From assembly GCF_024529975.1 (NCBI RefSeq), contig NZ_AP024897.1, forward strand, positions 2,046,001-2,110,000: a DNA stretch of 64,000 bases, given 5' to 3'. The first letter of the stretch is position 1, and each line of letters opens with the position of its first letter. This document shows positions 37,282-61,234 of this stretch, in pieces. Under the pieces are notes generated by a model that did not search any database, was not told the DNA's origin, and was given only the letters and a program-made list of their open reading frames with translations. The translations under genes were made by a program, and so were the position numbers. This DNA is from Vibrio quintilis. Lineage in GTDB: Bacteria > Pseudomonadota > Gammaproteobacteria > Enterobacterales > Vibrionaceae.

Positions 37282-37836
37282 ATGGTCCGCTCAATTCACA
37301 GCAAAAATATAGCAGGGAACCCTGAACCTCATCACTTCTGGACAATCTGGTCCGAGTATCAATCCCGACTGCTTCATTGTTGTCTGCATTGGTTAAACGG
37401 TAATTATACCCACGCTGAGGATGCGCTTTCTCAGGCACTGGAAAAATCATATCACTGCTTTCAACATGCAAAAGAACATATCAGGAATCCGTTTTCCTGG
37501 TTATACCGCCTGACTTATACCATTTGCATCGATATGTTAAGAGAACAGAAGAAACAGCAACATCTTGTTGAGATTGTCAGTGCCAGCCCGGAACAATTTT
37601 ACTTTTCGGCAGCGACAACGGAATGTCTGGAAGAGCTGATTCAGCGGGATGATACCCTGGATAATCTGGAGCAGGCTTTTGAAAACCTGAACATTGATTT
37701 AAAAAAAATAATCCAACACAGGTTTATCGAAGAAAGGGATTACCCGGAAATTGCTGAAATCATGCAGATTACCCCGGAGAATGCACGAAAGCGGGTCCAG
37801 CTCGCCAGAAAGCAACTCCGTTTTATCAGCATATAA
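37282..37836 (+). CDS. ECF-type RNA polymerase sigma factor at the head of the eCIS locus
   Basis: A 184-residue protein with ECF sigma layout: region 2 (about 20-88; F-W-T-I-W-S-E-Y-Q-S-R-L-L, A-E-D-A-L-S-Q-A-L-E-K-S and N-P-F-S-W-L-Y-R-L-T-Y-T-I-C-I-D) and region 4 (about 122-182; L-E-Q-A-F-E-N-L, Y-P-E-I-A-E-I-M-Q-I-T-P-E-N-A-R-K-R-V-Q-L-A-R helix-turn-helix). Strong AAGGAG ribosome site. No anti-sigma factor is adjacent. Position directly before the NusG-like gene and injection-system genes suggests it drives the locus, either from its own promoter or from one further inside. It could also be a degenerate sigma with only regulatory function. Confidence 0.8.
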   Translation: MVRSIHSKNIAGNPEPHHFWTIWSEYQSRLLHCCLHWLNGNYTHAEDALSQALEKSYHCFQHAKEHIRNPFSWLYRLTYTICIDMLREQKKQQHLVEIVSASPEQFYFSAATTECLEELIQRDDTLDNLEQAFENLNIDLKKIIQHRFIEERDYPEIAEIMQITPENARKRVQLARKQLRFISI

Positions 37837-37868
37837 TATTCACTTTTTTATTCACAAATCGCCAGGTG

Positions 37869-37892
37869 GTTCGTCTTAAAGGCAGGACGAAC
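37869..37892 (+). other. Hairpin between sigma and NusG-like genes
   Basis: Seven-base perfect stem GTTCGTC / GACGAAC within the 175-base leader of the NusG-like gene. No T run. It could be a pause or loading element for the antiterminator, but this is only a suggestion. Confidence 0.3.
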
Positions 37893-38011
37893 ATAAAACC
37901 ATGATACAACCAGTCAACGAATACTCAGAATTACAGTAACCACTGATTGAGTGATATATCAGAAAAGGGCAGTCATGTAACTGACCAGGCGGAGCTTGTC
38001 TGAAAGGAAAA

Positions 38012-38526
38012 ATGATGGAACAAAAACAATGGTATGTCATCTACACCCGCGCCAATACGGAAAAAAAATGCAGCAAAGGCTTACGGAAAAACATTTTAAA
38101 ACCTTTTTACCCACTAACTCTGTCACCCGGCACTGGAGTGACCGGAAAAAAGTGATTCAGGAACCATTATTTAAGTCCTATTTATTTGTCCGGTCAGAAA
38201 TCAATACACTTCATCAAATCAAAACCATTGCAGGTTTTGCATACTTTCTGCAGTTTGGGGGCTATCCGGTCACGATATCTGAAAATCAGATCCGACAAAT
38301 ACAAAAGGTGACGGACCATTACTCAGATACAACTTCCATTGCAAGCAAACTGATACAAGGTGACAGTGTCACTATAACCAAAGGTCCACTGAAAGCAATG
38401 ACCGGTGAACTCATCGAATTCCAGGGAAAAAAGAAAGTTGCCATTGAGGTGAGTCAGCTCAATCAGTCCATGTTGGTTTCACTGCCTTTGTCCTGCATTG
38501 CCAAACAGTCAATGAGACAGGCATAA
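38012..38526 (+). CDS. NusG/RfaH-like antiterminator, interrupted by a -1 frame change at an A8 tract
   Basis: The complete NusG-type protein (171 residues) is split over two frames. From the ATG at 38012 (after AAAGGA) the first 19 residues read M-M-E-Q-K-Q-W-Y-V-I-Y-T-R-A-N-T-E-K-K, the canonical NGN beta strand and helix start. At the run of eight A (38061-38068) that frame would continue only to a stop at 38153-38155 (47 residues), while the -1 frame continues with Q-R-L-T-E-K-H-F-K-T-F-L-P-T, S-Y-L-F-V-R and a KOW domain (about 115-165; G-D-S-V-T-I-T-K-G-P-L-K-A-M-T-G). One extra A, by transcript slippage, or -1 ribosomal slippage on A-AAA-AAA, restores the protein; an indel or sequencing error is the alternative. 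NusG paralogues with eCIS or polysaccharide loci promote read-through of long operons. Confidence 0.8.
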
Positions 38527-38538
38527 AAGGAATCTGCC

Positions 38539-40683
38539 ATGTCCGAAACCGATCAACTAGTTTATTTTCCGGAAAACAGTGATAACCATCTTCAACATCA
38601 GGCTGAGCAGCAACTGGCTGAAAGCTTATATGATTTAGGCCTGACGCTGGCGAATCAGGAATCGCCGGAAGAGATTCAGGAAGCCCAGAAAAAACAGCTG
38701 ATCAACCTGAGAAACCTGCTGAAAACCCGGAAATGGACCCTGATTAGCGGACATTTTTCTCTGTCCGAAAGTGAAGTGGCGTTACTTGCTGTCGTTTACC
38801 TGTTTCAGCTCGAACCGGATCTGTTATCTGCTTATGCCGGTCTGAACTGGTATGAACGCGGGCCGGGAGTCAGTGCGGAACGTGTTTTATCATTAATCCC
38901 CGGAGCGCATGACTCAGACTTACCGGCGATGAAAACCGGATTATTGATGCCGGACAGCCCATTGATTCAGGCCGGATTGCTGATCTGTCATGATCCGGTG
39001 AATCCACTGAGCCAGTCCCTGACAGTGTCCGGACCATTTTTTGCCCGGATGGGTTATCAAGCGCCAACGGGTGATCAAAGCCGGAATATACCGGATGCAA
39101 ACAGCTGGCTCATCCGGGAATCTGATGCGGTGAACCCGGCAAGCCGGGCTATGTTTACCGAACACTTCCGGCAGCCGGTGTTAAGGCTGGGGCTGAACCA
39201 AATCAGTAGCTCTGAATCAGATGAAATATTGTCATTTGTGCACGCCATACTTGAAAATCAACTGATGTCTGACATTAATCAGACAGAAGAACCAACCGGT
39301 CAGGTTGATGAAAGGGAGAACAACCCGCCAGAGCCATACCGGCTATGGATGGTTCACTCATCTCCACAGACGAAGGATGAAGCGATAATGCTGCAACAGG
39401 CCTGCCTGGATGCTGCACTTCATTCAATCCCGGCTGACCTGGCTATCTGCTGGCCATCATTATGGCAGGATAGCCTGAATTCAGACATTCTCCGGCGTTT
39501 TGTCTGGTATCTCATTCACCATGATAAAGTGCTGTTGTTTTGTGAGCCTTACCATCGGGGGGAGGAGGAGGATCGCGATTCTGTCTGGGTTGAAGAAATC
39601 ACGCACCGCGTCGCTATTTCTGATTATGATCTTTCCTGCTCCGCGCCACAAAGGGCATCCGGGTGGCTGGCACTGTTTCAACAGGCGAACCTGATCCATC
39701 CGGATCAGCATGATGCTTGTGTACTTGCAGAGCGATATCCGCTCTCTGCGCCGGAAATGCAGTGGGTATTTGAAAAACAACATGCACAAAACAAAGACAG
39801 CCTTGACGCATTACAAAAGGCATGTCTGCAACATATTCATTCCGGCACACAGCATCATGGACTGGCAACATTCGTGATTCCCCGGCTGACCCTTTCGGAC
39901 ATGATCTTACCCGCAGGGATTCTTGAAGCTATTGAAGAACTGCTGGCCCGGATAAATCACCGCGATGCCATAAGGACATTATTACCCACAAGCAGCTTTG
40001 GGCTGCATGCCTTGCTTTGGGGCCCTCCGGGTACCGGGAAATCGATGGCGGCAGAAGCGATGGCCGGTGAATTGTGCTTACCACTGTATAAAGTCAACCT
40101 GGCAAACGTTGCCAGTAAATGGATAGGTGAGACTGAAAAACATTTAGCACAACTGTTTGAGCGGGCTGAATCTCAACATGCGGTTTTGTTATTCGATGAA
40201 GCAGATGCGATTTTCGCCAAACGCAGTGAAGTGGAATCCAGTCATGACCGGCATGCCAATCTGGGAGTCAGTTTTCTGTTGCAACGAATGGAAACTTATC
40301 AGGGGATTTTACTGCTCAGTACCAATTTTAAATCAAATATTGATGATGCATTTCTGCGCCGCTTCACTTCGGTCATTGAATTTGGCCTGCCTGACAAGGC
40401 ATTGCGGCATCAGTTATGGCATCAGGTCTGGCCGGATACATTTCGTCTGTCCCCCGATCTTGATATGGATTACTTAATCGCAGAATTCGAATTATCACCT
40501 TCCCAGATTTACAACATAGCCGAACGGGCCTGTCTGTTCGCGATGATGAACGGGGAAACCGGGATCCATCAGTCACAAATCGCGAAAGCTCTGAAATGTG
40601 AGCTGGACAAACAAAGCTCAGGGTTTATGGCGGCCCGGCATATTGCCGGATGGCAAACACCAGTGCCAACAAAGTCACAATGA
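38539..40683 (+). CDS. eCIS AAA+ ATPase (Pvc15/Afp15-like)
   Basis: A 714-residue ATPase with a long N-terminal region (about 1-450) specific to eCIS proteins and a C-terminal AAA+ module. Walker A is G-P-P-G-T-G-K-S (495-502), Walker B is L-L-F-D-E-A-D (Asp 553, Glu 554), followed by sensor-like S-T-N-F-K and the arginine-finger region F-L-R-R-F. In Afp and PVC systems this ATPase is needed for particle assembly or payload loading and is not part of the released particle. AAGGAATC provides the ribosome site, 12 bases after the NusG-like gene. The stop overlaps the leader of the next gene. Confidence 0.9.
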   Translation: MSETDQLVYFPENSDNHLQHQAEQQLAESLYDLGLTLANQESPEEIQEAQKKQLINLRNLLKTRKWTLISGHFSLSESEVALLAVVYLFQLEPDLLSAYAGLNWYERGPGVSAERVLSLIPGAHDSDLPAMKTGLLMPDSPLIQAGLLICHDPVNPLSQSLTVSGPFFARMGYQAPTGDQSRNIPDANSWLIRESDAVNPASRAMFTEHFRQPVLRLGLNQISSSESDEILSFVHAILENQLMSDINQTEEPTGQVDERENNPPEPYRLWMVHSSPQTKDEAIMLQQACLDAALHSIPADLAICWPSLWQDSLNSDILRRFVWYLIHHDKVLLFCEPYHRGEEEDRDSVWVEEITHRVAISDYDLSCSAPQRASGWLALFQQANLIHPDQHDACVLAERYPLSAPEMQWVFEKQHAQNKDSLDALQKACLQHIHSGTQHHGLATFVIPRLTLSDMILPAGILEAIEELLARINHRDAIRTLLPTSSFGLHALLWGPPGTGKSMAAEAMAGELCLPLYKVNLANVASKWIGETEKHLAQLFERAESQHAVLLFDEADAIFAKRSEVESSHDRHANLGVSFLLQRMETYQGILLLSTNFKSNIDDAFLRRFTSVIEFGLPDKALRHQLWHQVWPDTFRLSPDLDMDYLIAEFELSPSQIYNIAERACLFAMMNGETGIHQSQIAKALKCELDKQSSGFMAARHIAGWQTPVPTKSQ

Positions 40684-40704
40684 TTGACAGATAAAGGATG
40701 CAGT

Positions 40705-41373: not shown

Positions 41374-42189
41374 ATGACAAATTCAAAAGAGCAGGTACAA
41401 AGTTATTTTGAACCGGGAGACACGCCGACTTCCGCAGAATTTTACGAGTTGATTGATCTGGCGACCAATGCGGAAGCAATTGATGCAGGGACAATCGGCA
41501 ATGATTATTTGCCTGAAAACATCGAAGTTACTTCTGTCACAGCAGAACTAAATGGCGATGGCAGCGGAATTACAGGCCTTAATGCGACAGCGTTAACAGG
41601 GCAAATCACTAACGATAATTTACCCGATGACATCGAAGTTAATTCAGTCACAGCGACTTCTGTCACAGCAACACTAAGTGGTGATGGCAGCGGCATTACA
41701 GGCCTTAATGCGACAGCCTTAACAGGGCAAATCACTAACGATAATTTACCCGATGACATCGAAGTTAATTCAGTCACAGCGACTTCTGTCACAGCAACAA
41801 CACTAAGTGGCGATGGCAGCGGTATTACCAATCTGAATCCGGAAAACCTGTCAGGCAAAGTTCCTATCGACCAAATTCCTACAGGTGCGGTTGAAAATAA
41901 CTCGCCAGACGAAGTTCCAACCACTCAGTCAACCAAGAGTTATGTTGATACCCGTCTGCCTGACGGTGTCATTATGATGTGGTCAGGGGAAGTGGCCCCT
42001 GAAGGCTGGGCCTTGTGCAATGGAGACAATGGTACTCCTGATTTGCAGGGGCACTACATTATTGGTGCGAGCGATGACTTTCCGTTGAATAGTTCAGAAC
42101 AGATAGATCAATCAGACGCGATGAAAGTCGCTGGACAGCCGCTTTATTTCGCCCTGAACTACATCATGAAGGTGACGCCTCAAGCGTAA
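41374..42189 (+). CDS. eCIS fibre-like protein with tandem repeats and tail-collar domain
   Basis: A 271-residue protein. The N-terminal helix (about 1-30) is followed by a repeated module (about 60-150) of roughly 42 residues (G-D-G-S-G-I-T-G-L-N-A-T-A-L-T-G-Q-I and variants), then a short P-T-T-Q-S-T-K-S-Y-V-D chaperone/trimerisation-like motif (about 182-192) and a phage tail-collar-type C-terminus (V-I-M-M-W-S-G-E-V-A-P-E-G-W-A-L-C-N-G, about 197-215). Such proteins form trimeric fibres or tips for receptor binding in phages and CIS. The large fibre at 56240 has the same P-T-Q-K-A-V-K-T-Y-V-D motif. Placement between the cap and payload genes is unusual for a fibre. Confidence 0.78.
   Translation: MTNSKEQVQSYFEPGDTPTSAEFYELIDLATNAEAIDAGTIGNDYLPENIEVTSVTAELNGDGSGITGLNATALTGQITNDNLPDDIEVNSVTATSVTATLSGDGSGITGLNATALTGQITNDNLPDDIEVNSVTATSVTATTLSGDGSGITNLNPENLSGKVPIDQIPTGAVENNSPDEVPTTQSTKSYVDTRLPDGVIMMWSGEVAPEGWALCNGDNGTPDLQGHYIIGASDDFPLNSSEQIDQSDAMKVAGQPLYFALNYIMKVTPQA
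41554..41830 (+). repeat. Tandem coding repeats of 126 and 129 bp
   Basis: The element starting GGYGATGGCAGCGG begins at 41554, 41680 and 41809 (spacings 126 and 129), with the intervening units almost identical. The 3-base difference is a single extra codon. These encode the fibre's repeated module and would allow slippage or recombination to vary fibre length. Confidence 0.9.
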
Positions 42190-42199: not shown

Positions 42200-43306
42200 A
42201 TGTACCGCTTCAAAACAGAAACAGACCAGCCCGTCAAACAGCAGAAAAAAAACACCACCGGCCTGCCTGATCACGTCAAAAGCGGGGTGGAACAACTTTC
42301 GGGCATGAATCTGGACCAGGTTCAGGTCCATTACAATTCATCTCATCCGGCTCAACTCAATGCACATGCTTATGCGCAGGGCAATCAAATTCACGTGGCG
42401 CCCGGTCAGGAGCATCATATTGCCCACGAGACATGGCATATGGTCCAACAGGCACAGGGACGGGTACCGCCAACAACTCAGGTGGGTGGTCAGGCCGTGA
42501 ATGATAACCCGGCACTGGAAGCAGAAGCCGATCAAATGGGGCGGCAGGCGGAAAGATTAGGTAAATCAGACAATGGCAAGACTGAATCACCAACAAACCA
42601 TGCGCCAAAGCAGCTCTGTCCGATCATTCAATTGTCAAAAGACTGGAAAACAAGTGCATTACAACAGGAAATCAAGAAAGAACAACAACAAGTGACCGAC
42701 TTTGACCTTGTGCATACAGCGCATCATATTTTACCGAAGAGTGAGCTGTGGAAAACCTATCAACAGTTGTCCGGTCATGAGCAGAAAAACATTGCACAAC
42801 AGATGGCCGGAAAAGACACTCTGACAGAAAAGAAGGTCAAATCCCTGCAATTTAACCTGACGCTGGGACCAAAGCCTGAACTGAGAACGGATGATCCTAA
42901 AAATGGGTTTGATCCGAACTATGCCAGCGGCGTTATGACTCCCCGCTCTAAGGCCCTCAGCAAAGCCTGGAATGCTTCATCAAATCAGATTGATCCGAAA
43001 GCATTGGCGGATGCATTACAAAAAGCGAAACAGATGCACCAACATCACCCGATCATGAACAGAAGCAAATGGAACAAAAAGCCAAACGGTAAATTCAGCC
43101 GGGATAAAAATCAGCATGCGCCGGTTGCTCTGACAAATCAGGTCGCCGCAGCCAGTGCGCCGGCCCCACAAAACCCACAGCCTCCACAACCAGTCGCGAC
43201 GGTAGCACAACCCTGGCTGACACCACTGATAAAAAAAGCGGCAATAACCACACTGGGTCTGGGAACCATGATATGGGCTGCATCTCTGACATGGGCATCC
43301 GAATAA
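42200..43306 (+). CDS. eCIS-associated DUF4157 protein with AHH nuclease-like segment (candidate payload)
   Basis: A 368-residue protein. The N-terminal half is a DUF4157 (eCIS core) domain (about 20-115) with a zincin-like H-E-T-W-H (76-80) and the downstream acidic N-P-A-L-E-A-E-A-D; these domains are common in eCIS cargo and may process or direct it. A segment with A-H-H-I-L-P-K-S (174-181) resembles HNH/AHH-type nuclease toxins, followed by L-G-P-K-P-E-L-R-T-D-D-P and a helix-rich region. The C-terminus is Pro/Ala-rich and ends in a hydrophobic stretch (about 345-366). GGAGT precedes the ATG. Nuclease activity is inferred from one motif only. Confidence 0.7.
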   Translation: MYRFKTETDQPVKQQKKNTTGLPDHVKSGVEQLSGMNLDQVQVHYNSSHPAQLNAHAYAQGNQIHVAPGQEHHIAHETWHMVQQAQGRVPPTTQVGGQAVNDNPALEAEADQMGRQAERLGKSDNGKTESPTNHAPKQLCPIIQLSKDWKTSALQQEIKKEQQQVTDFDLVHTAHHILPKSELWKTYQQLSGHEQKNIAQQMAGKDTLTEKKVKSLQFNLTLGPKPELRTDDPKNGFDPNYASGVMTPRSKALSKAWNASSNQIDPKALADALQKAKQMHQHHPIMNRSKWNKKPNGKFSRDKNQHAPVALTNQVAAASAPAPQNPQPPQPVATVAQPWLTPLIKKAAITTLGLGTMIWAASLTWASE

Positions 43307-43333: not shown

Positions 43334-43882
43334 ATGTACCGGCATAACAAAAAAATCAAGCGTCTGGCCACGAAAGCCCCTTTACACAGTCCGGCACGGG
43401 CTGCTGAGATGAGTGGTTTACGCCGTTATCCGGTCCGGCAACTTTCTCCGGAAAAGATGGAGATTGATCAACCGGATGAGGCCATGGAGGTGGACCAGAA
43501 AATCAACCCATATCAGCTGACTCATAACTGTTATTACTGTACGGCTGCTTATTTAGCCGGTTATGACGATGTCAATGACATGGTCGGAGAGACAGGAATC
43601 ATGCAGCAACACACAGCCCCTCTGGATGAAATAATGTCTTTGTTTCAATACGTTGGATTGACATATAACTATCATCACTCCACCAATCCCGCTGATATTG
43701 AACTGGCGAAAAAGAGTGGCAAGCGGTTTGGTCTGGCTTATGTCAGAAATGATCCGGGCAGAACCGGGCATATGGTCGTCATCGAACATGGCCGGATTAT
43801 TGACACCCAGCAAGACCATAAGGAAGTGGATCCCATCGCTGAGCAGGCTGTCGAATTTCACTTTTTTGAGCTCAATCATTAA
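43334..43882 (+). CDS. Tox-PL-like papain-fold protein (candidate eCIS payload)
   Basis: A 182-residue protein. Residues 1-60 are basic then acidic and low in complexity (K-M-E-I-D-Q-P-D-E-A-M-E-V-D-Q), typical of a cargo-packaging tail. The compact domain (about 62-182) has N-C-Y-Y-C-T-A-A-Y (Cys 66 or 69), then G-H-M-V-V-I-E-H-G (His 146) and I-I-D-T-Q-Q-D (Asp 157), the order and spacing of the cysteine-protease/deamidase toxin family Tox-PL. It begins M-Y-R like the preceding payload. GAAGGA ribosome site. The enzyme activity (protease, deamidase or other thiol hydrolase) is not determined. Confidence 0.65.
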   Translation: MYRHNKKIKRLATKAPLHSPARAAEMSGLRRYPVRQLSPEKMEIDQPDEAMEVDQKINPYQLTHNCYYCTAAYLAGYDDVNDMVGETGIMQQHTAPLDEIMSLFQYVGLTYNYHHSTNPADIELAKKSGKRFGLAYVRNDPGRTGHMVVIEHGRIIDTQQDHKEVDPIAEQAVEFHFFELNH

Positions 43883-43954: not shown

Positions 43955-44350
43955 ATGGCAACAAAACCCGTTGCAGTTCCTGGTATGACATTTCAGTTCT
44001 CACCCGCCAGTGTCTCTGGTGTGGTCCAGGTTTTAACACCACCTTCAATGAAACTGACTGCCGGAGGAAAGGGCGTTTACCTTGGACCGGTCTCGGTGCT
44101 GATCACCAATATCAGACAAGCCGACAAAGGCAGTGTTGTGCCCGGTATCTATCAGGGCACATTCCGGCCCACGGCAAAAAAATTACTGGCGCCCGGTAAA
44201 GCAGCCCTGCGGGAAGGCGATGAAATTGCCGGGTGTTCAGATATGGGGATGGCGATGAAACCCGGCCCGAATGGTGTGCCGGTTCCCAGCCCGATTTCAT
44301 TCCGGATCAAAATCAAAAATCCGGGCCAGAAAAAATTAGTGTGTGAATAA
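43955..44350 (+). CDS. PAAR-like spike-tip protein
   Basis: A 131-residue protein with beta-rich, Gly/Pro-rich character and the segment G-K-A-A-L-R-E-G-D-E-I-A-G-C (about 85-98), very close to the PAAR domain consensus G-K-P-A-A-R-x-G-D-x-V-x-C; L-I-T-N-I and P-G-I-Y-Q-G resemble the preceding PAAR strands. PAAR proteins cap the spike of contractile systems. No pvc10 equivalent lies in the usual place between the spike (48165) and gp25-like (49793) genes, so this likely fills that role from a displaced position next to payloads. GGAGAT precedes the ATG. Confidence 0.65.
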   Translation: MATKPVAVPGMTFQFSPASVSGVVQVLTPPSMKLTAGGKGVYLGPVSVLITNIRQADKGSVVPGIYQGTFRPTAKKLLAPGKAALREGDEIAGCSDMGMAMKPGPNGVPVPSPISFRIKIKNPGQKKLVCE

Positions 44351-44388: not shown

Positions 44389-44507
44389 TGAATGAATAAT
44401 CAGGCAGATGAGATAGCGCCACCGGGATAAAACCGGTGCGGCAACATGTCATCAAATGTGGTACGCAATCGCGTTTTCACCCTCTCGTAAAGATAAAGGT
44501 AAAGAGA

Positions 44508-45899
44508 ATGGCGCAATATAAAACCCCAAATGTATACGTGAAAGAATTATCGACATTGCCGGCATCTGTCGCAGAAGTCGCAACAGCAATTCCGGCGTTT
44601 ATCGGTTATACCGAACTCGTCACCGATAAGGATGATGAAAACAAATCACTTATCGGTAAACCCATACGCATTACCAGCTTATCTGAATACGAAGAAAGCT
44701 TTGGTGGCCCGTATGCAGAAGCAATCACTGTAAAACAAAACCCGGTATCAGAAGAATTTTATATTCCTGAAACAGAAGAGACGGCACTGGCGCAATTTTT
44801 CTTATATCAGGCTGTTCAGCACTTTTTCGCCAATGGTGGTGGTGCCTGTTATATCGTCAGTACCGGTGATTATTCAGGTGAGGTAGTCGATACAGATTTT
44901 GATTTAGCGGTGTTGGAAAAAGTGGACGAAGTCACATTGTTTGTGATGCCGGAAACGGTACACCTGAGTGAAGAGCTGCATTATGGTCTGCATAAAACCG
45001 CATTAACGCAGGCCAGCAAATTAATGGATCGGTTCGCAGTGACTGATGTGAAACAATTATCAGTGCTGGATGGCAATATTGCAGACGATTCAGCCAGTAT
45101 GCGAGATAATCTGGCCGGAGAACTGAACGAGCTGAAATACGGCGCAACCTATTATCCCTATGTGCGCACGACAATTGCCCGCCACTATACGGATGATACC
45201 GTGACGATTGAATATGCCGATGAAAGAGTTGGTGGCGACCCTCAAACTCTGGCCGATCTGTATGAAGAATCCACCGCACAATACAACGAGATTGTGGCAT
45301 TACTCCGTCAGAATTATCTGATTTTACCCCCCAGTGCCGCAGTTGCCGGTTGTATGGCCAAAACTGATACCAGCCGCGGTGTCTGGAAAGCACCGGCCAA
45401 TGTCGCGTTAAGTCAGGTGCTGGAGCCGATGGTTTCGATAGATAACAGTCAGCAGGAAAACCTGAACGTTGATGTAACGGCCGGGAAATCGGTGAACGCC
45501 ATCCGGACATTTGTCGGTAAAGGTACGTTGATATGGGGCGCCCGGACACTGGCAGGGAATGACCTTGAATGGCGTTATGTTTCAGTCCGGCGCTTCTTCA
45601 ACATGGTGGAAGAGTCTTTGCAAAAATCGACCGCTTTTGCTGTTTTTGAACCCAATACCGCAATTACCTGGCTGAAGCTCAAAACCATGACCGAAAATTA
45701 CCTGCGGACACTCTGGCAGCAGGGCGCTCTGATGGGAAGCAGCGAAGATCAGGCTTTCTTTGTTCAGGTTGGCCTTGGTGAGAGTATGACCGAACAGGAT
45801 ATTCTCGAAGGGATTATGAGAATCAATATCGGCCTGGCCGCAACACGGCCGGCAGAATTTATCGAACTGACATTCCAGCACAAGTCTCTGGAAAGCTGA
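44508..45899 (+). CDS. eCIS contractile sheath protein (Pvc2-like)
   Basis: A 463-residue phage tail sheath family protein that polymerises around the inner tube and contracts on firing. N-terminal T-P-N-V-Y-V-K-E-L and A-T-A-I-P-A-F-I-G-Y-T-E are characteristic of sheath proteins of Afp/PVC; the C-terminal handshake domain includes R-Y-V-S-V-R-R-F-F-N-M-V-E-E-S-L and N-I-G-L-A-A-T-R-P-A-E-F-I. Start at 44508 after AAAGAGA; an earlier frame start (44436) adds unrelated residues. Afp and PVC have three sheath paralogues, whereas only one is present here. Confidence 0.93.
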   Translation: MAQYKTPNVYVKELSTLPASVAEVATAIPAFIGYTELVTDKDDENKSLIGKPIRITSLSEYEESFGGPYAEAITVKQNPVSEEFYIPETEETALAQFFLYQAVQHFFANGGGACYIVSTGDYSGEVVDTDFDLAVLEKVDEVTLFVMPETVHLSEELHYGLHKTALTQASKLMDRFAVTDVKQLSVLDGNIADDSASMRDNLAGELNELKYGATYYPYVRTTIARHYTDDTVTIEYADERVGGDPQTLADLYEESTAQYNEIVALLRQNYLILPPSAAVAGCMAKTDTSRGVWKAPANVALSQVLEPMVSIDNSQQENLNVDVTAGKSVNAIRTFVGKGTLIWGARTLAGNDLEWRYVSVRRFFNMVEESLQKSTAFAVFEPNTAITWLKLKTMTENYLRTLWQQGALMGSSEDQAFFVQVGLGESMTEQDILEGIMRINIGLAATRPAEFIELTFQHKSLES

Positions 45900-46008
45900 T
45901 CTTTGAAGCCACCCGGATTTGTGGTGTCTTGATCTGTTTGCGGGATCATGTCGCACCAACAAACATGGGAACATTCTATTCCATTCATTTCACTCTGGAG
46001 TTTTACAC

Positions 46009-46455: not shown

Positions 46456-46538
46456 ACAGAACCAGCATTGAAACAGAGTCAGCACTCCGGATAAAGCGCC
46501 GGAAAGCAACCTGACTGAACCATTTCAGCCCCCGTGTT

Positions 46539-46565: not shown

Positions 46566-46578
46566 AAAAGGCCTGCCT

Positions 46579-50194: not shown

Positions 50195-50213
50195 CCGCTT
50201 TCAGGAACCGACT

Positions 50214-53528: not shown

Positions 53529-53594
53529 GTCTTTCTTGCTGTGATTCTTCCATCACTGATGTCCTATAACAGATGCTTTCAGGTGATATTTTTC

Positions 53595-56219
53595 ATGACG
53601 ACAACTTCAACAACGGCGTATATTTCCCGTTCGCCACGGGAACAAAGTGGTCAGAACCTGCCGCTATTGCAACAGCAGGCACTCTCTGCGATTCAGCAGT
53701 ATGCCGATCAAACCTGGACCAATCACAATCCGACTGATCCGGGAATCACCTTATTAGATGTTCTGGCATTTATCATTTCAGATTTAAGCTATCAGCTTGA
53801 ATTTCCGGTGCGGGATTTAATGGCATGGCCAGAGGAGCAATCAGAATCAGCCGCTCCATTCTGGCTGGCCCCGGATGTGCTTCCGTCCAACACAGTCACC
53901 ATGACGGACTACCGCCGCATGATCATGGATATTCCCGGCATACGAGCCGTTTTTCTGAGCCGCTCTCCCGTGACTGACAGATGGTATGTAGTCATTGATA
54001 CCAAATCCGCATTGCTGACAAAACAACAGCGTTTAGCACTGGCTGATCAGGTCAGACAACGTTTTGTGACTGAGCGGAATGTTGATGATGATATCGCCGG
54101 ACTCTGCTTTATCCAAAAACATCCGGTTGCACTAAAAATGAAGTTGTTATTTGGTCCGTTACGTGACCCCGTCACAACTCTGGTCGATGTGTTTACCCGG
54201 CTCAATGAGGTGATTTCTCCTGAAATACCACAACAAAGTCTCGAAGGTATGCTCGATGCCGGTGAGACTGCCGACCTTATCTTTGAAGGCCCTTATACTG
54301 AAAATGGCATTATTCAGCCTGAATCACTGGAGACAGAAGCCTTTCCTCAGTCTCTGTTCGCTTCTGATTTAATTCATGTGATGCATCAGGTCACATCGCT
54401 GAAAACGGTAAGCCAGCTGATTTTTCAGCCTCTGTCTGATGAAGGCAGCAGCAGGCTTACATTGAAAGAAGATGAAATACAGTGGCAATATCAGATAACA
54501 ACAGAAGATAAAGAGAGAGAAGGACAAGCCGGAAATAATCAGGGCCTGACAGAATTATTCCCCCGGTCATTCAGCTTTGACCTGAAAGAAACACTGGATC
54601 TTTTATCGATTGAGATTGATGGTCAGGCTTATCCACTCACAGATGCGCAAAAAAAAGCCATCCTGTTTAAATATCACTGGCCGGAGAATACCGAAGAAGA
54701 GGATGTTGCTTCTTCGGTATTTCCTGATCTTGAAGCTTATCAGCAAGGGCAGTACCGGGAACTGAAAAAGTATCAGTCTCTGCAATACGAATTTCCGGTG
54801 ATTTATCGGCTGATTGATGCCCGGCTGGATGCACAAATTGACAGTCAGTCACTGGCCCGAATCATGCAGTTGAAAGGCTTTCTGACGTTGTTTGATCAGG
54901 TGTTAGCAGACCAGTTTTTCCAGTTAGAAACCTTGAAAGTACTGCTGGCATTGCCGGACAAACAGAGCTTTACGGTTCTGGCCCGGCTGTTTGATAAAAT
55001 GCTGGGCAGCGAGACACTGTCACAAAAAGAGGTAAAATATTTCTGGGAAGCGGTTGATAACTTGCCCAAAACCATCGTCAGCCAGCCGGTGACTGATATC
55101 AGCGGGATGAAAAACCTGATGGGTTCGTATTTCAATGACTACCAGACTGACGGCTTTCAGCCTGATGCAGAAACGCCATTTGATGCAACACAGCTTGACC
55201 GGTTGAACAGAGGGCTTTCCCATTTGTTAGCCCGGTATGCAGAAACCACAATCGATGCCAATCTGCTTCAATATGATCCTGTCTTGTCTTTCTATCTTGA
55301 TGTGTTAGAAGCAGGGATGCCTGAAAATGTGGCACTGAAGTTACCTGCGTTGGAAGCATGGATGGGCGGAAAGAATGAGCCACTTTTACAGCGATTGGTT
55401 TTGTTGAAGCAGGTCACTGAGAAAGCAACCATTTTAAATGATTACCCGAGGCTTAGCCGCCTGAGAGCGGGAGGATACAACTATGCTGGCAATCCACCCC
55501 GGCGGAATTTTTCTGACTCGCTCAAACACCGGATCTTAAGTTTTCTGGGGGTATATCAAACTGAAGCGATGCCATTGGCAACAAATAATAAAGAAGGATT
55601 CTATCTGACAGAAAGTATTCTGCTCTGGGCTGGAATGCCTGTCCCGGGATCCCCGCCGGAAACTTCGGACATCATCCCAAAAGATAAAGACAGTGAACCT
55701 GTGGCGGTAGAAAAGAGGACACTCTATTTTGTGATTCCGGACTGGCCGACACGCTTTGCAAACGCGGAATTCAGAAATCTGCTTGAAGAGCAGATCCTCA
55801 GGGAAACGCCGGCTCACCTGACCTGTAAAGTCCTTTATCTGCCACGGGAACAAATGAGCCGGTTTGAACAGCTTTATTATGACTGGCGTAACGCAATGAC
55901 CCAGTGTCCGTTTCCTGTATGGGATGGAGAGGCTTTACTTAACCCGCCAAATCCGGAATACCTCAGATGGTTAAGAGACACAACAAAACAGCTGAATGAA
56001 TTTTTTCATACCGCAGACAGCAGCTGCCTTTCGCCCATCCAATATGAACGAAAGCCAATCGGTCAGGGCATCATTTCTGATAATTTCATCATTGGTTACA
56101 GGCCGTTACCGGTCCTGCATCCGGTGACACCTGTCAGTCAGGCTTATATTCATCCGGACAATATTAACCCCGTATTTTACGTCAATATCAAAACGCCTAA
56201 TTCTATCAACCCCGTTTAA
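53595..56219 (+). CDS. eCIS baseplate protein (Pvc12-like)
   Basis: An 874-residue protein with the family N-terminus D-Q-T-W-T-N-H-N-P-T-D-P-G-I-T-L-L-D-V-L-A-F (about 35-56), matching baseplate wedge proteins of Afp/PVC (gp6-like second wedge). The middle contains charged helices and the C-terminus is beta-rich. The start is set at the ATG at 53595, giving the T-T-T-S-T-T start. It precedes the fibre gene. Confidence 0.85.
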   Translation: MTTTSTTAYISRSPREQSGQNLPLLQQQALSAIQQYADQTWTNHNPTDPGITLLDVLAFIISDLSYQLEFPVRDLMAWPEEQSESAAPFWLAPDVLPSNTVTMTDYRRMIMDIPGIRAVFLSRSPVTDRWYVVIDTKSALLTKQQRLALADQVRQRFVTERNVDDDIAGLCFIQKHPVALKMKLLFGPLRDPVTTLVDVFTRLNEVISPEIPQQSLEGMLDAGETADLIFEGPYTENGIIQPESLETEAFPQSLFASDLIHVMHQVTSLKTVSQLIFQPLSDEGSSRLTLKEDEIQWQYQITTEDKEREGQAGNNQGLTELFPRSFSFDLKETLDLLSIEIDGQAYPLTDAQKKAILFKYHWPENTEEEDVASSVFPDLEAYQQGQYRELKKYQSLQYEFPVIYRLIDARLDAQIDSQSLARIMQLKGFLTLFDQVLADQFFQLETLKVLLALPDKQSFTVLARLFDKMLGSETLSQKEVKYFWEAVDNLPKTIVSQPVTDISGMKNLMGSYFNDYQTDGFQPDAETPFDATQLDRLNRGLSHLLARYAETTIDANLLQYDPVLSFYLDVLEAGMPENVALKLPALEAWMGGKNEPLLQRLVLLKQVTEKATILNDYPRLSRLRAGGYNYAGNPPRRNFSDSLKHRILSFLGVYQTEAMPLATNNKEGFYLTESILLWAGMPVPGSPPETSDIIPKDKDSEPVAVEKRTLYFVIPDWPTRFANAEFRNLLEEQILRETPAHLTCKVLYLPREQMSRFEQLYYDWRNAMTQCPFPVWDGEALLNPPNPEYLRWLRDTTKQLNEFFHTADSSCLSPIQYERKPIGQGIISDNFIIGYRPLPVLHPVTPVSQAYIHPDNINPVFYVNIKTPNSINPV

Positions 56220-56239: not shown

Positions 56240-59200
56240 ATGAGCACTAGTGAACAACTGATCCAATCGCCTGCCGGCTCTGAATCATTGGACTCAAAGA
56301 AAGACAGTAACAAACAGAACACCAACTCACTTCTGGGCGCAGCAGAGCTAAAACCTGAATTTGCTGACAATGAATGCCCGGATGGTGATGACTTTGCCAA
56401 TCTGATTGATGCTTCATTTAATAAGAAAGATGGCCCCATCAGGGAAACCGATCAGGAAACAATCGAGGTCGATAAAAAAACCGACTTTCTTGCCGGTGTG
56501 AGTGTCACTGGTGGTCTCGAAACTGATACGTTCGTCAGCGGTGATCTGACAGCGGAAGGGAACGTCACTGTGAGTGGCAAACTCGATGTATCGGAATCTC
56601 CGCTCACGATTGGCAACGGGGAAACTCAGGCTCAGATAGGAGAGGAGCAGCTGAGCATCGGCGATACACTGGTCTTGGATCAAGGGGAGTTTACCGTCAA
56701 TGCCAATACTCATTTGAACGGCGAAACCCGGCTGAAAGGCACGGTCAGCATGACCCATTCCGGTGAATTGATCGGACCAACACTCTATGTCAGCGGAAAA
56801 ACTGAAGTCGATCAATTACAAGTCGGAGCACCGGTTCTGCTTGGTCATGATAATGCACACATTGAACTCAGAAACAGCGGTAATAAAGATGCACTTTTAG
56901 TGACCGCAAATGGATCAACCTTTTTGTCACTGGATAAAAACGGACAACTTTCTCTTGGCTTATCCGGTGACAATTCATCTGCAAAATTACATATCCGCAG
57001 TGACGAAGATGATGCGGATAGTGTGGTCCGGGTGGATACCAAAGACAATGATGATTCACCATTTGTGATCACTTCGGAAAATAACGTGGGGGTGGGTACG
57101 GAATCTCCCGATAATCCGTTAGATGTGATTGGCTCTGTCCGGGTTGGGGCATCAGAAGTCGTTGCTTCACCTCATAGTTTATCGGTTGAGAACCGGATCG
57201 GAGTCGGAACCGCCAGCCCGATGGCAAGACTCGATATCCATACACAAAATAGTGAAACGGCCATGCTGCTGCGTTCCGGAGAGTCCAGCCTGCTCGATGT
57301 CTCCTCAGCAGGGGTAATGACCGACACTTCTCTGACCGTAGCGGGTGAAACCGGCCTGAACAATACCACTGTGAATGGGACGCTGACCGTTAAAGATGAG
57401 ACTTCAATTGCCGGTAAAACTCACTTTGAACAGGATGTCTCAATTGCCGGTATGCTTTCGGTTGAAAAAGAAACCTATCTGAAAACCACCACAATCAGTG
57501 ATAAAACCACACTGGAAGATGTTCTGATCGTGGAAGGTGAGACCAAACATCAGGGAGCGGTCGGCATTGGTATCGGTGATGGCTTATTTAATCATCCGGA
57601 AGCCGGTTTACACATCCGGGAAACCGACAACCTGCCGGGGCTGAAAATAGAAAGCAAAGAAGGGAAAACCAAAGTTCTGGTCAGTGAGAACCAGATATCC
57701 CTGGGGGAAACCGGTACACCAGTGACACTGAACATCACCGGGGATACGTTACAGGACGGCGAGTTAATCACCAATACGCTGACGGTAGAAGATCATACAA
57801 CGCTGAAAACAGCAACTACAGTGGAAAGCCAGCTCACGGTCCTGCAGTCCGGGGCTGAAACCGAAACAGACAGTGCCCTCAAAATACAGTCTGCCGGCGA
57901 AAATGCCGCACTTGAAGTCAATCATACGATCGGAAAAATGCTGCAACCATTGATCTGTGCCAGAGTGGATAAAGTCGGTATTCTCAACAGTCAACCGGAA
58001 AAAGCGCTGCATGTTTCAGGAGAGGCCCGGTTTGATGCGCCGGTTGAGCTGATGCAATCGCTCTCGATTCAGGGGCCGATCAATGCCGGATCCGGACTTG
58101 AAATTCAGGGGGACGCCCATGTTTCCGGCAGCTTTGATGTAAGTGGCGATACAAGTTTAGGTGGTGCACTATCTGTTGATGGCAGTACAGCAATGTCAGG
58201 CGCGGTAGCGATAGCAGGGCCGGCAACCTTAAATGCCTCGCTGGATGTCACCGGAGCCGCTACATTGACAAGCTTAAGTGCAAATACAATTCAGTCCGCA
58301 TCGACAATTTCCGGAGCCAGTGTAAAAGCAGGAAATGACCTGCAAGTCGGCGGGGGATTGACAATTAAGGGCTTTTCCGCTGATGCAATGCTTGGCGGCA
58401 TCAGCGCCAGCGATACTCAGGTTCCGACACAAAAAGCAGTCAAGACCTATGTTGATCAAATCTCACCGTCTTTCGGCAGCGGCGGGAAAATGCATGTGAT
58501 CAGCACACAGGCTGAATTTGACAACCTGTTTAATCAGGGAACACCGACAAAGATAGAAACGAATACAACCATTCTGTTGTTTCCGGCCGGCACAGCAAGC
58601 ACCACCGAAAGTTACATGTTGAAAAACAGCGTCAGGTTAAACCCGGGGGTCTCCATTATAGGGTTCAACCGGGAATCAACCCGGATCGAGAAAGCAAATG
58701 CCGGTAACAGATTTGAGGCTTTTGGTACTTCAACTGATCCGGTTAGCGCCATCACTCTGGATGGTTTTACTTTTGATGGAAAGCAAATCCCCTCTGAACA
58801 GGATGGTGGGGCGCTTTATGTCGAATATGTTGAGAACTGTCTCTTTAATTGTCTGTTTGAAAACCATATCGTCACCGGGAACGGGGGCGCAATCTATGCA
58901 AGACCTGGAACAGTGAACAATATCGAAGCCCGGAATATTCACGCCTGCCAGGCTCAAAATAGTGCAGGCTCAAAAGGTGAAGGCGGTGCTGTTTATGGGC
59001 TGTTGAATTCAGTTATCGTGGCATGGGGTTGTAAAGCTGAGAAAGGAGGTGCAGTGGCTGGTTGTGATTCTTGTCAGGTCGAAGCTGTTGCCTGTTATGC
59101 AGAGCAAAGTGGTGGTGGTGCCAGCCAGTGTAAACAACTGAGACTTACTGCCCGTGCGTGTCAGGCAAACAGCAGTGATGGTCAGGGGGGCGGGGCATAT

Positions 59201-59347
59201 AATTGCGAAGATTTGATTTGCGAAGGGATATGGCAGGACAATCAGGCATCTCTGGGCCCTAATATTTACTCATCAGAAGATTATTTCTGGAAAGGCGACT
59301 ATGTCGGCAGCCGGACAGATCCTGGCTGGAAAAATATCGACTGCTGA
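56240..59347 (+). CDS. Large eCIS tail fibre with repetitive stalk and C-terminal beta-helix (Pvc13-like)
   Basis: A 1035-residue fibre. The N-terminal 65 residues are polar and probably dock to the baseplate. A long stalk (about 85-735) consists of repeated short motifs of the type V-S-G-x-T-x-x-x-x-x-L-x-V. Near 725-735 lies P-T-Q-K-A-V-K-T-Y-V-D, shared with the 41374 fibre. The C-terminal part (about 745-1035) is a Gly/Asn-rich right-handed beta-helix-like domain with many cysteines (G-G-A-x-Y ladder, e.g. G-G-A-L-Y-V, G-G-A-I-Y-A, G-G-A-V-Y-G, G-G-G-A-Y-N), likely binding surface carbohydrate or protein of the target cell. A terminator follows. Host range of the particle is probably set here. 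Confidence 0.85.
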   Translation: MSTSEQLIQSPAGSESLDSKKDSNKQNTNSLLGAAELKPEFADNECPDGDDFANLIDASFNKKDGPIRETDQETIEVDKKTDFLAGVSVTGGLETDTFVSGDLTAEGNVTVSGKLDVSESPLTIGNGETQAQIGEEQLSIGDTLVLDQGEFTVNANTHLNGETRLKGTVSMTHSGELIGPTLYVSGKTEVDQLQVGAPVLLGHDNAHIELRNSGNKDALLVTANGSTFLSLDKNGQLSLGLSGDNSSAKLHIRSDEDDADSVVRVDTKDNDDSPFVITSENNVGVGTESPDNPLDVIGSVRVGASEVVASPHSLSVENRIGVGTASPMARLDIHTQNSETAMLLRSGESSLLDVSSAGVMTDTSLTVAGETGLNNTTVNGTLTVKDETSIAGKTHFEQDVSIAGMLSVEKETYLKTTTISDKTTLEDVLIVEGETKHQGAVGIGIGDGLFNHPEAGLHIRETDNLPGLKIESKEGKTKVLVSENQISLGETGTPVTLNITGDTLQDGELITNTLTVEDHTTLKTATTVESQLTVLQSGAETETDSALKIQSAGENAALEVNHTIGKMLQPLICARVDKVGILNSQPEKALHVSGEARFDAPVELMQSLSIQGPINAGSGLEIQGDAHVSGSFDVSGDTSLGGALSVDGSTAMSGAVAIAGPATLNASLDVTGAATLTSLSANTIQSASTISGASVKAGNDLQVGGGLTIKGFSADAMLGGISASDTQVPTQKAVKTYVDQISPSFGSGGKMHVISTQAEFDNLFNQGTPTKIETNTTILLFPAGTASTTESYMLKNSVRLNPGVSIIGFNRESTRIEKANAGNRFEAFGTSTDPVSAITLDGFTFDGKQIPSEQDGGALYVEYVENCLFNCLFENHIVTGNGGAIYARPGTVNNIEARNIHACQAQNSAGSKGEGGAVYGLLNSVIVAWGCKAEKGGAVAGCDSCQVEAVACYAEQSGGGASQCKQLRLTARACQANSSDGQGGGAYNCEDLICEGIWQDNQASLGPNIYSSEDYFWKGDYVGSRTDPGWKNIDC

Positions 59348-59374
59348 TTTGGATAAAGCTTATTCAGTCTACAG

Positions 59375-59407
59375 AAAAAGCCCTGAGTTTTTGGCGGGGC
59401 TTTTTTT
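59375..59407 (+). terminator. Intrinsic terminator between fibre and tape-measure genes
   Basis: Stem AAAAAGCCC / GGGCTTTTT (59375-59383, 59397-59405) with T7. It lies within the eCIS locus, 40 bases before the next gene. Confidence 0.88.
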
Positions 59408-59446
59408 ATTCAAACGCTTTTTTCACGCAAACAGTAAAGTGTAAAT

Positions 59447-61234
59447 ATGACTATTTATATTGAAAAACTGACGTTGGATCTGGATATTTCTGAGCCTGAT
59501 GATGCCAGGAAAGCGGCAAAAATACAGGCCGCGCTGGCGATTTTACCAGAGCTGATCAAACATGAGCTGTCATTTTTGGATATTCCGGATATTTCATCTG
59601 TACTGTCCATCAACAAGAACGTTCCGGACAAACAGGAAATTCATCTGCCTGACATTGATGTAGAAACCCTGATTGATACACCGGTATCTGTGGCTAAAAC
59701 GGTCGCACTTTCCGTTGCAGCAGAGATATGCCCGCTGGATGTCGGTGTTCCGGGAACAGATGATGATCAACAGGAAAATGATCATTCAATCAATACATGG
59801 ATGCATGATATGAATAGCGGGCAGGTGAGTCTGATTTCTGCTTCTCAGGCCAGAGTATTCAGCCAGCAGTTAGTCACTGAGTTATCCTCTCATTCAGCAC
59901 AAATTTCATACTGTTTGAAGTTACCGGAAAAACTCAACGAGCCATCATTCTTTTACCGGTTTATTGATTTCTTACTTAAGCTGACTCTGTCAGAAAGAAG
60001 CAAGCTTGTATTCTCAATGCTCATGAACCTGTCAAAGACTGTTTCAAAAGCTTCTCAGTTACTTGATCTCCGGATCTCTCCTTTGCTCGAACAAAATCTG
60101 AGGGTGAAAACCGATATATCAGAGATGATTTCCTTTATTGCTGTTTTATTCGATCAACAGAACAGAGATTCCGGAAATTCTTTGCGTATTCAGCAACAAT
60201 TCAGAAAATTATCGCTGTTGCTTGAACTAAGGCGGCTTGAGTTCAGGAAAACGGAATTAAGTCACAACGCATTCCCGGCAGAGAGTTTAACCCGGCTCAG
60301 GCAGATATTTCTCTATTCATGTGATGAGGCAACATTAAATGCAGCTGCAACCTGGCTTCAGGTCGCTCAGATCCAACCGCCAACCACCAAAGAGGCAGAT
60401 ATATTAGCAACACTTGCGGCACGGGTTGAAGGAAACACCGGGCACCCGTCGGATCAGAAAGCCTCCCGGTTCAGCCTTCAGGCTGAAATGCAGTTCTGGA
60501 AACAGGTTCTCCCCATATTATCAGAGCGTAATATGGGTGAGATTTCCGGAAAAGAACGGGGGGAACAGATTCAAAATAAGGTGACATCTCAGCTTTTTGA
60601 TAGTCTGCCTGATTCTGCGTGGCTGACGAGTCAGTTTCAAATGTTATCAGGTCAGGAAAGTACCGCAGATTTACGAAGGGAGGTTCAGGCGAAAATCACC
60701 CGGTTATCCGGACAGTTCACGCATGAAGCGCAATACACAAATGATGGCGGCCTGACTTTACTGTGGCCATTTATCCCCGTTTTGTTCAGACAACTGGCGC
60801 TGTTAACGCCGGAAAACGAGAATGTTTGTCAATTTATCTCTCCGGAGAGTCAGGCGAAAGCTTATGCCGTACTGAGACACTTATTGGGTTCAGCGCATGA
60901 CAGTTACTCAGCTGTGGCAAATCTGTTTGTTGGTTATGAAGCGGATACCGTGGTGAGCAGACTCACTGAACTTAGTGATACAGAGTGCGAAACAGCAGGA
61001 CAAATTTTCTCTGTACTCATCGCTCACTGGCAGGCATTAAAGAATATGCCGCCATCATCAATTCAGCAGATGTTCCTGCAGCGCCAGGCAACGATTAAGA
61101 CATTTTCTCTGGGCACAGCTGTGTCCGTACAAAAGCAGGCGGTGGATGTTCTGATGCAAAAATTGCCGTGGGGGTTAAGTATGATTCGGTTCCCGTGGCT
61201 GAATGACAGGCTGATTTCAGTTGAATGGCGTTAA
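59447..61234 (+). CDS. eCIS tape-measure protein (Pvc14-like)
   Basis: A 595-residue protein. The C-terminal domain (about 440-595) has the family hallmark G-L-T-L-L-W-P-F-I-P-V-L-F, then Y-A-V-L-R-H-L-L-G, H-W-Q-A-L-K-N-M-P, F-L-Q-R-Q-A and the terminal L-P-W-G-L-S-M-I-R-F-P-W-L-N...V-E-W; this is the pattern of CIS tape-measure proteins. The helical N-terminal two-thirds would set tube length. No clear ribosome site is visible and an intrinsic terminator stands just upstream, so its expression needs read-through or a promoter in the 99-base gap. Last gene of the locus. Confidence 0.85.
   Translation: MTIYIEKLTLDLDISEPDDARKAAKIQAALAILPELIKHELSFLDIPDISSVLSINKNVPDKQEIHLPDIDVETLIDTPVSVAKTVALSVAAEICPLDVGVPGTDDDQQENDHSINTWMHDMNSGQVSLISASQARVFSQQLVTELSSHSAQISYCLKLPEKLNEPSFFYRFIDFLLKLTLSERSKLVFSMLMNLSKTVSKASQLLDLRISPLLEQNLRVKTDISEMISFIAVLFDQQNRDSGNSLRIQQQFRKLSLLLELRRLEFRKTELSHNAFPAESLTRLRQIFLYSCDEATLNAAATWLQVAQIQPPTTKEADILATLAARVEGNTGHPSDQKASRFSLQAEMQFWKQVLPILSERNMGEISGKERGEQIQNKVTSQLFDSLPDSAWLTSQFQMLSGQESTADLRREVQAKITRLSGQFTHEAQYTNDGGLTLLWPFIPVLFRQLALLTPENENVCQFISPESQAKAYAVLRHLLGSAHDSYSAVANLFVGYEADTVVSRLTELSDTECETAGQIFSVLIAHWQALKNMPPSSIQQMFLQRQATIKTFSLGTAVSVQKQAVDVLMQKLPWGLSMIRFPWLNDRLISVEWR

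What the first reader, a model, noticed from the sequence alone, without database searches (positions are those of the whole stretch)
37282..61234. A complete-looking extracellular contractile injection system (Afp/PVC family) with its own sigma and NusG-like regulators
Nineteen consecutive + strand genes include every core part expected of an eCIS: ATPase, DUF4255 cap, one sheath, two tube-type proteins, LysM adaptor, VgrG-like spike, gp25, two large wedge proteins, a long fibre and a tape-measure protein, plus a PAAR-like tip and two candidate payloads. No T6SS membrane-complex genes and no phage capsid, portal or integrase genes occur. The single sheath gene and the order (cap, fibre, payloads, tip, sheath, tube) differ from Photorhabdus PVC and Serratia Afp.
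Basis: partly seen in the sequence, partly recalled or inferred. Interest (0 to 1): 0.9.

Follow-up and report, generated by a model that had tools for sequence, protein, structure and literature searches.

The report
Injection-particle operon with its own sigma factor
A Vibrio carries genes for a phage-tail-like protein-injecting particle that seems to be switched on by its own dedicated sigma factor, whose likely promoter also sits before a distant cargo gene; the promoter evidence comes from DNA comparison and is untested in the lab.

Summary
In detail: 37282-61234 encodes a 19-gene extracellular contractile injection system (eCIS) on the + strand. Three points change. (1) Its sheath is nearer Anabaena All3325 and 7adz (AlgoCIS, recalled) than Afp/PVC. 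(2) The NusG-like gene is split over two frames at an A-run. (3) The PAAR and LysM labels found no Pfam support. The new part is regulation. A promoter-like motif, TTCAC-N16-CGTCTT, precedes the ECF sigma gene in four related clusters and nusG in three (0 of 2000 shuffle sets share any such motif). In Vibrio aerogenes it also precedes the sheath and putative lysis genes; here and in V. aerogenes it precedes an unlinked gene with an eCIS-cargo-type N-terminus. An ops-like element, CTGANNNGGCGGAGC, occurs 1, 3 and 3 times in three genomes, always in the cluster. Sheaths of the four sigma-bearing clusters group together (100/98). NusG-paralog/ops control is published for Afp/PVC; a dedicated eCIS sigma factor I did not find in print. 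Lysis-type genes present in three relatives are absent from this cluster. One cargo is predicted papain-like.

The parts
37228..37254 (+). putative sigma-dependent promoter P1 (TTCAC-N16-CGTCTT), upstream of the sigma gene
   Evidence: same motif, same 16-nt spacer, upstream of the sigma gene in four clusters
37282..37836 (+). ECF-type sigma factor, 184 aa
37851..37877 (+). putative sigma-dependent promoter P2, upstream of nusG
37981..37995 (+). ops-like element CTGACCAGGCGGAGC in the nusG leader; the only exact CTGANNNGGCGGAGC site in this genome
38012..38526 (+). UpxY/RfaH-type NusG paralog, split over two reading frames at the A-run 38061-38068
38539..40683 (+). AAA ATPase (Afp15/Pvc15 position), 714 aa
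40684..41370 (+). tail cap/terminator, Pvc16_N (likely start MDALILQ, about 40705)
41374..42189 (+). short fibre with Collar domain
42200..43306 (+). candidate cargo: eCIS_core (DUF4157) domain plus C-terminal domain with HHILPK motif
43334..43882 (+). candidate cargo: low-confidence 60-aa leader plus predicted papain-like fold (C66, H146, D157 shared with its one relative)
43955..44350 (+). 131-aa protein of unknown family, tip candidate by position only
44436..45899 (+). single contractile sheath (likely start MAQYKTP, about 44508)
45919..46455 (+). inner tube protein, gp19 family (likely start MADTAQ, about 46009)
46539..46565 (+). intrinsic-terminator-like hairpin plus T7 between the two tube genes; strong hairpins without such a T-run at this boundary in three relatives
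46534..47034 (+). second gp19-family protein (likely start MSSSND, about 46579)
47101..47412 (+). 103-aa small protein; counterpart in V. aerogenes (28% identity)
47415..48155 (+). CIS_tube protein (Afp7/Pvc7 position)
48165..49793 (+). VgrG-like spike (Phage_base_V)
49793..50194 (+). gp25 baseplate wedge
50118..53477 (+). Baseplate_J protein (Afp11 position; likely start about 50214)
53541..56219 (+). second large baseplate protein (Afp12 position); 52% identical to V. aerogenes counterpart
56240..59347 (+). long fibre with weak tail-fibre PHROG matches
59375..59407 (+). second terminator-like hairpin plus T-run, between fibre and tape measure (seen by eye; not listed by the scan)
59447..61234 (+). 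tape measure protein (CIS_TMP), 595 aa

Best explanation
This is a chromosomal eCIS operon of a Vibrio with one sheath gene, belonging to a small gammaproteobacterial group (this genome, V. aerogenes, Algicola sagamiensis, Alteromonadaceae DT_4) that carries a dedicated ECF sigma factor and a NusG paralog at its head. Proposed working: an unknown signal raises the sigma factor; it recognises TTCAC-N16-CGTCTT at its own promoter (positive feedback) and at the nusG leader. The nusG transcript passes an ops-like element, CTGANNNGGCGGAGC, where the NusG paralog would join RNA polymerase and let it read about 23 kb, past two internal terminator-like hairpins, to the tape measure gene. The same promoter also drives at least one unlinked cargo gene, so particle and cargo would be made together. 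The particle (tube with cargo, sheath, baseplate, fibres) would be assembled in the cytosol and fire on a target. Shown by sequence: gene content, shared promoter-like and ops-like DNA and their positions, the unlinked site, the sheath group. Inferred: sigma-promoter pairing, NusG loading, co-expression, release and target. In this genome the NusG step may be off or weak, as its gene is split over two frames, and release would need lysis functions from outside the cluster.
For: Gene content. TTCAC-N16-CGTCTT is the only gapped 5+6 motif (spacer 12-20) shared by four 300-nt sigma leaders; 0 of 2000 dinucleotide-shuffled sets share any. The same site is shared by three nusG leaders, 0 of 2000. 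29 loci of other ECF genes (about 1.5 kb each side) carry neither motif, and of 80 sheath-relative loci only two (Algicola, DT_4) carry either. Genome-wide exact sites: 2 of 5 here, 5 of 8 in V. aerogenes (sigma, nusG, two sheath copies, putative lysis genes), 2 of 5 in Algicola and 1 of 2 in DT_4 lie in the cluster on the coding strand. One of the three other sites here is intergenic and starts 179 nt before an unlinked eCIS_core gene; V. aerogenes has the same arrangement before a different gene with the same kind of N-terminus. The ops-like pattern lies only in the cluster in this genome, V. aerogenes and Algicola: 1 of 1, 3 of 3, 3 of 3. In 394 genomes of the order only this cluster's sigma scores high (313 bits, next 58, up to 8 candidates scored per genome, V. 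aerogenes not among the listed matches). Sheaths of the four sigma-bearing clusters group at 100/98. Control of afp by the NusG paralog AnfA1 and RfaH operators before PVC operons are published (PMC6748792 passages).
Against: Nothing here measures transcription. All promoter sites outside clusters number 3, 3, 3 and 1, against 4, 3, 1 and 2 for the reversed control, so only the site next to cargo stands out, and its V. aerogenes counterpart lies in related flanking DNA, so it is not independent. The motif was first seen by eye in the same leaders that one search tests. The sheath leader here has no such promoter or ops-like site, unlike V. aerogenes (both) and Algicola (ops-like, weak promoter). 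The other two unlinked eCIS_core genes found here show no promoter within about 1.5 kb. The DT_4 nusG leader lacks the ops-like element, and in DT_4 the element also precedes other UpxY genes, so it is not eCIS-specific. The NusG gene is split here; a 152-aa truncated form is recorded on 2 contigs, one of them this chromosome. No lysis genes are in the cluster.
Confidence: 0.75

Rival explanations
1. Plain eCIS in which the sigma gene is only a neighbour; the shared promoter-like motif belongs to another regulator, and control is by the NusG paralog alone, as in Serratia Afp.
For: Serratia Afp has a NusG-family gene and lysis genes but no sigma gene annotated in the stretch fetched (that gene table is incomplete); NusG paralogs activate afp (PMC6391919, PMC6748792 passages).
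Against: Sigma and nusG sit side by side at the head of four clusters; the two-part motif with a fixed 16-nt spacer has the shape of an ECF promoter (recalled); the only strong match to the sigma family in 394 genomes is this cluster's.
Confidence: 0.15
2. A decaying eCIS: the split nusG and missing lysis genes mean it is no longer made.
For: nusG split; no lysozyme/holin-type family hit in the cluster; the sister copy in V. aerogenes has an in-frame stop in the ATPase, an interrupted cargo region and a tandem duplication.
Against: The other 18 genes are single open frames, 13 of them over a Pfam cut-off; both promoters and the ops-like site match those of relatives at every defined base.
Confidence: 0.25
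3. A defective contractile prophage or R-type tailocin.
For: Sheath, tube and baseplate parts are shared with contractile phages (sheath matches 864 phage records).
Against: CIS_TMP, Pvc16_N, CIS_tube and eCIS_core are eCIS families; the tape measure matches none of 50,697 phage records at E<=1e-5; none of the 864 sheath matches covers 80% of the query; no capsid or integrase family among the 19.
Confidence: 0.02

Closest known systems
Anabaena thylakoid-anchored CIS (All3325) and AlgoCIS (7adz, name recalled)
   Same: Closest solved sheaths by sequence.
   Different: Whether these systems have a sigma/NusG head was not checked. The Anabaena CIS is called thylakoid-anchored (listing of PMC8894136).
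Serratia entomophila Afp with AnfA1
   Same: NusG-family gene at the head, eCIS core genes; published RfaH-type operator and control by the NusG paralog AnfA1 (passages).
   Different: Three sheath genes, lysis genes in the cluster, AAA and cap at the 3' end, no sigma gene annotated in the stretch.
Photorhabdus PVC
   Same: Core parts; RfaH operator GGCGGTAGNNT before class I and III operons (passages).
   Different: Sheath more distant. The element here reads GGCGGAGC, and the NusG paralog is in the cluster.
eCIS regulators GerE/BTAD and RfaH (Geller et al. 2021, PMC8213781)
   Same: Regulators next to eCIS operons (passages).
   Different: The word 'sigma' does not occur in that main text.

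Membership tests
extracellular contractile injection system (eCIS) | eCIS-specific families (CIS_TMP, Pvc16_N, CIS_tube) together with sheath, gp19 tube, gp25, spike, Baseplate_J and AAA | tested here: met
   all over curated cut-offs, sheath by PF17482
extracellular contractile injection system (eCIS) | no capsid/portal and no T6SS membrane-complex genes in the cluster | tested here: met
   none among 19 proteins at E<=0.01
extracellular contractile injection system (eCIS) | particles released from the cell | not testable with these tools
   no lysis genes in the cluster; needs microscopy of lysates
Afp/PVC subfamily | sheath nearest to Afp/PVC sheaths, with several sheath genes | tested here: not met
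   All3325, 7adz and 9r9h score higher; one sheath gene in the cluster
ECF sigma factor | sigma-70 regions 2 and 4, superfamily score over cut-off | tested here: met
   TIGR02937 75.3 of 42.9; r4_2 40.3 of 25.7, r2 21.0, below its 24
UpxY/RfaH-type NusG paralog | NF033644 over cut-off in one intact frame | tested here: inconclusive
   score 121.7 of 100, but the N-terminal residues lie in another frame
ops element (GGCGGTAGNNT) | published operator sequence | tested here: inconclusive
   related but not identical: GGCGGAGC (consensus quoted)
PAAR tip | PAAR family match | tested here: not met
   no Pfam match at E<=10
papain-like cysteine peptidase fold (cargo 43334-43882) | fold match | tested here: met
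papain-like cysteine peptidase fold (cargo 43334-43882) | catalytic Cys-His-Asp set | tested here: inconclusive
   C66, H146, D157 identical in the only two sequences; geometry and activity not examined

The most novel reading that the evidence does not exclude
A dedicated sigma factor is the master switch of a dispersed injection-particle regulon: it fires its own promoter, the particle operon, lysis genes where present, and mobile unlinked cargo genes that have picked up its promoter beside an integrase. The split nusG gene is then a slippage or phase switch that limits full-length particle transcripts to a few cells.
Probability: 0.15. Interest if true: 0.82.

Novelty: new variant of a known kind. 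Interest (0 to 1): 0.62.

Why it matters
The signals that turn eCIS operons on are called 'yet unknown' in the 2021 survey (PMC8213781 passage). A named sigma factor with a predicted promoter and ops-like element makes one case directly testable, and the promoter becomes a handle for finding cargo genes far from the particle genes, which surveys limited to the cluster's surroundings would miss. It also marks a small eCIS group in gammaproteobacteria and adds a cargo with a predicted papain-like fold.

Tried and rejected
Sigma and NusG as chance neighbours: rejected because both recur at the head of four clusters with shared leader DNA.

Chromosomal empty site: the MatP gene was found in 117 of 118 genus genomes and its surroundings compared in four of them and V. 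aerogenes. Window genes at 23.9-36.8 kb match only V. aerogenes; genes at 16.0-23.9 kb match three or four of the others too, but far from MatP, so no clean empty site was found.

Spread of the sigma/NusG head among 80 sheath relatives (the best 80 of 480): loci have flanks of 10 kb at most, so a negative is weak; by tblastn the sigma gene was seen in 1 and NusG in 2. A genome-wide NusG look in 15 of those genomes found 4 with matches; only the Algicola and DT_4 ones were followed. For the tree, 76 of the 80 loci were kept by sheath length and strand; L021 and the second Algicola sheath are long branches and the tool warns that their join may be false.

Viral contigs: sheath gave 2 loci, sigma alignment none. 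The third sheath of this genome was set aside as phage-tail-like by eye. RNA hairpins before the ops-like element fold differently between leaders, so no conserved structure is claimed. Structure of the 131-aa protein was never accepted by the queue. A Foldseek PDB search was not accepted either.

Literature, all by listing unless said: 'extracellular contractile injection system' + Vibrio + 'sigma factor' 1 paper, the Streptomyces CIS paper PMC10066040, not opened; NusG + 'antifeeding prophage' 2; 'contractile injection system' + Vibrio + eCIS 22, of which I saw passages of two, without a Vibrio eCIS in them; Afp + eCIS + 'ECF sigma factor' 0; 'ECF sigma factor' + 'contractile injection' 5, which look to be on T6SS, its effectors or Xanthomonas; RfaH + 'contractile injection' 5, passages seen of three; V. 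aerogenes/V. quintilis/contractile 2, not on eCIS by their titles. Subscription papers are mostly not held.
Full report
What is there. The window is G000:C1:2046001-2110000 of a 5.85-Mb, three-contig genome. The relative G174 is Vibrio aerogenes: its NusG protein is named 'RfaH [Vibrio aerogenes CECT 7868]' on a contig of the length of G174 C1. Nineteen + strand genes from 37282 to 61234 form an eCIS. Their order is sigma, nusG, AAA, cap, short fibre, eCIS_core cargo, second cargo, 131-aa protein, sheath, tube, second gp19 protein, 103-aa protein, CIS_tube, spike, gp25, Baseplate_J, second baseplate protein, long fibre, tape measure. The 131-aa 'PAAR' and 'LysM' labels are not supported by Pfam.

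Site. V. aerogenes has its cluster at the same place. The GH3 enzyme, XylR-type regulator, DUF3634, MatP and a Lon-like gene (the last named by eye) around it are 86-99% identical. Cluster genes are less alike, about 23-68%, except the sheath C-terminal half and first tube at 84-85%. The first cargo's leader matches over about 120 residues; the second cargo has no match there. The V. aerogenes cluster is about 41 kb, with an in-frame stop in the ATPase, integrase-like pieces behind the cargo gene, transposase-like genes (both by eye) and a tandem duplication that includes the start of the sheath.

Place among eCIS. The sheath matches All3325 and 7adz (AlgoCIS, recalled) better than Pvc3 or Afp3. 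In a tree of 81 sheath rows (76 of the 80 fetched loci plus five added), the window, V. aerogenes, both Algicola sheaths and Alteromonadaceae DT_4 form one group at 100/98; one of its six rows is a duplicate, and L021 and the second Algicola sheath are long branches. A different second eCIS lies elsewhere in the genome and resembles ones in other genomes of the genus.

Regulators. The sigma gene is ECF-type. In 394 genomes of the order, with up to 8 candidates scored in each, only this genome's scores high (313 bits, next 58). The NusG paralog passes the UpxY model. In Algicola the only match to it at E<=1e-5 lies at the head of the eCIS cluster. This genome has two PF02357 genes, this one and another at C1:354426.

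Promoter. Reading four leaders side by side showed TTCAC-N16-CGTCTT before sigma in all four and again before nusG in three. It is the only gapped 5+6 motif shared by the four sigma leaders, and 0 of 2000 shuffle sets share any. Exact genome-wide counts are 5, 8, 5 and 2 in this genome, V. aerogenes, Algicola and DT_4, of which 2, 5, 2 and 1 lie in the cluster; reversed controls are 4, 3, 1 and 2. The V. aerogenes sites not used to find the motif lie before both sheath copies and before the genes after the tape measure; one of those is holin-like by eye, with no Pfam match. In DT_4 a weaker site lies before a 3TM holin.

Unlinked cargo. Of three sites outside the cluster here, one (C1:2825936) is intergenic and starts 179 nt before a 583-aa eCIS_core gene; the other two lie inside or antisense to ORFs. 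Three sites and three unlinked eCIS_core genes would give such a pair within 300 nt, same strand, with a chance of about 2e-4 (my arithmetic). V. aerogenes has the same promoter sequence but for one base, before a different gene with the same kind of N-terminus (MHAQIEKPK.. against MYEQVEKPK..), downstream of an integrase-like gene; here only an integrase-like remnant precedes it. The two cases share flanking DNA and count as one. In Algicola one outside site is intergenic before a 209-aa ORF of unknown kind.

Ops-like element. CTGANNNGGCGGAGC occurs 1, 3 and 3 times in this genome, V. aerogenes and Algicola, always in the cluster on the coding strand: before nusG (all three), before sheath copies (V. 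aerogenes two, Algicola one) and before the block that follows the cap (Algicola one). Reversed controls are 0, 0 and 1. DT_4 has 10: two in its sheath leader, three directly before other UpxY-type genes, five not examined; its eCIS nusG lacks one. The published RfaH operator is GGCGGTAGNNT, reported before PVC operons and, as an RfaH operator sequence, in the afp promoter, where AnfA1 is the specific activator (PMC6748792 passages; also PMC6391919 passages). The NusG/ops half of this scheme is therefore known in kind; the sigma half I did not find in print.

Need for antitermination. Two terminator-like hairpins with T-runs lie inside the operon, 46539-46565 (listed by the scan) and 59375-59407 (seen by eye). 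The region as a whole has 31 terminator-like sites on both strands against a shuffle mean of 19.7, so single sites are weak evidence. Stable hairpins stand at the tube boundary in all four clusters, without a shuffle control; only the window's has the T-run.

Weak points. nusG is split over two frames at an A-run. The six other family members aligned with a complete start keep the N-terminal motif in frame; P0126 begins inside it. The 152-aa truncated form is on two contigs, so an assembly slip is less likely but not excluded. Slippage at the run could still give some full product; that is inference. Lysozymes follow nusG in V. aerogenes and Algicola (PF00959), and DT_4 has a Pesticin-type lysozyme and a holin; none is in this cluster, and the rest of the genome was not searched for them.

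Verdict. A real eCIS; new in carrying a dedicated ECF sigma factor with a predicted small regulon that reaches an unlinked cargo gene. The regulatory mechanism is inferred from comparison and awaits experiment.

Noticed in passing
G000:C1:1328463-1346883 (L099, L100): A second, different eCIS in the same genome, tape measure 1590 aa, with relatives in several other genomes of the genus.
   Followed up: partly
G000:C1:2814161 (L198) and G174:C1:2718149 (L200): eCIS_core genes next to a 440-aa gene, alike in both species by eye; perhaps the missing ATPase/cargo part of the second eCIS.
   Followed up: no
G000:C2:1114328 (L203): eCIS_core gene beside a 395-aa cargo-like gene starting MYVQIEKPK.., without the sigma promoter nearby.
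   Followed up: partly
cargo N-termini: L195, L196, L200, L203, L021:1354-1665(-), P0008: Shared leader of the kind MYxQxEKxKxN..NSVxQKK..FVDNR (by eye), a possible eCIS loading signal.
   Followed up: no
L103-L105 (V. aerogenes): Cluster with an in-frame stop in the ATPase gene, integrase-like pieces behind the cargo gene, transposase-like genes and a tandem duplication.
   Followed up: partly
G329:C45, C73 (L129, L126, L131): The ops-like element stands directly before three other UpxY-type genes of Alteromonadaceae DT_4, so it looks general for this NusG branch.
   Followed up: partly
G000:C1:1558585 (L101, L102): A third sheath gene in a phage-tail-like cluster followed by an NRPS-like gene (named by eye).
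   Followed up: no
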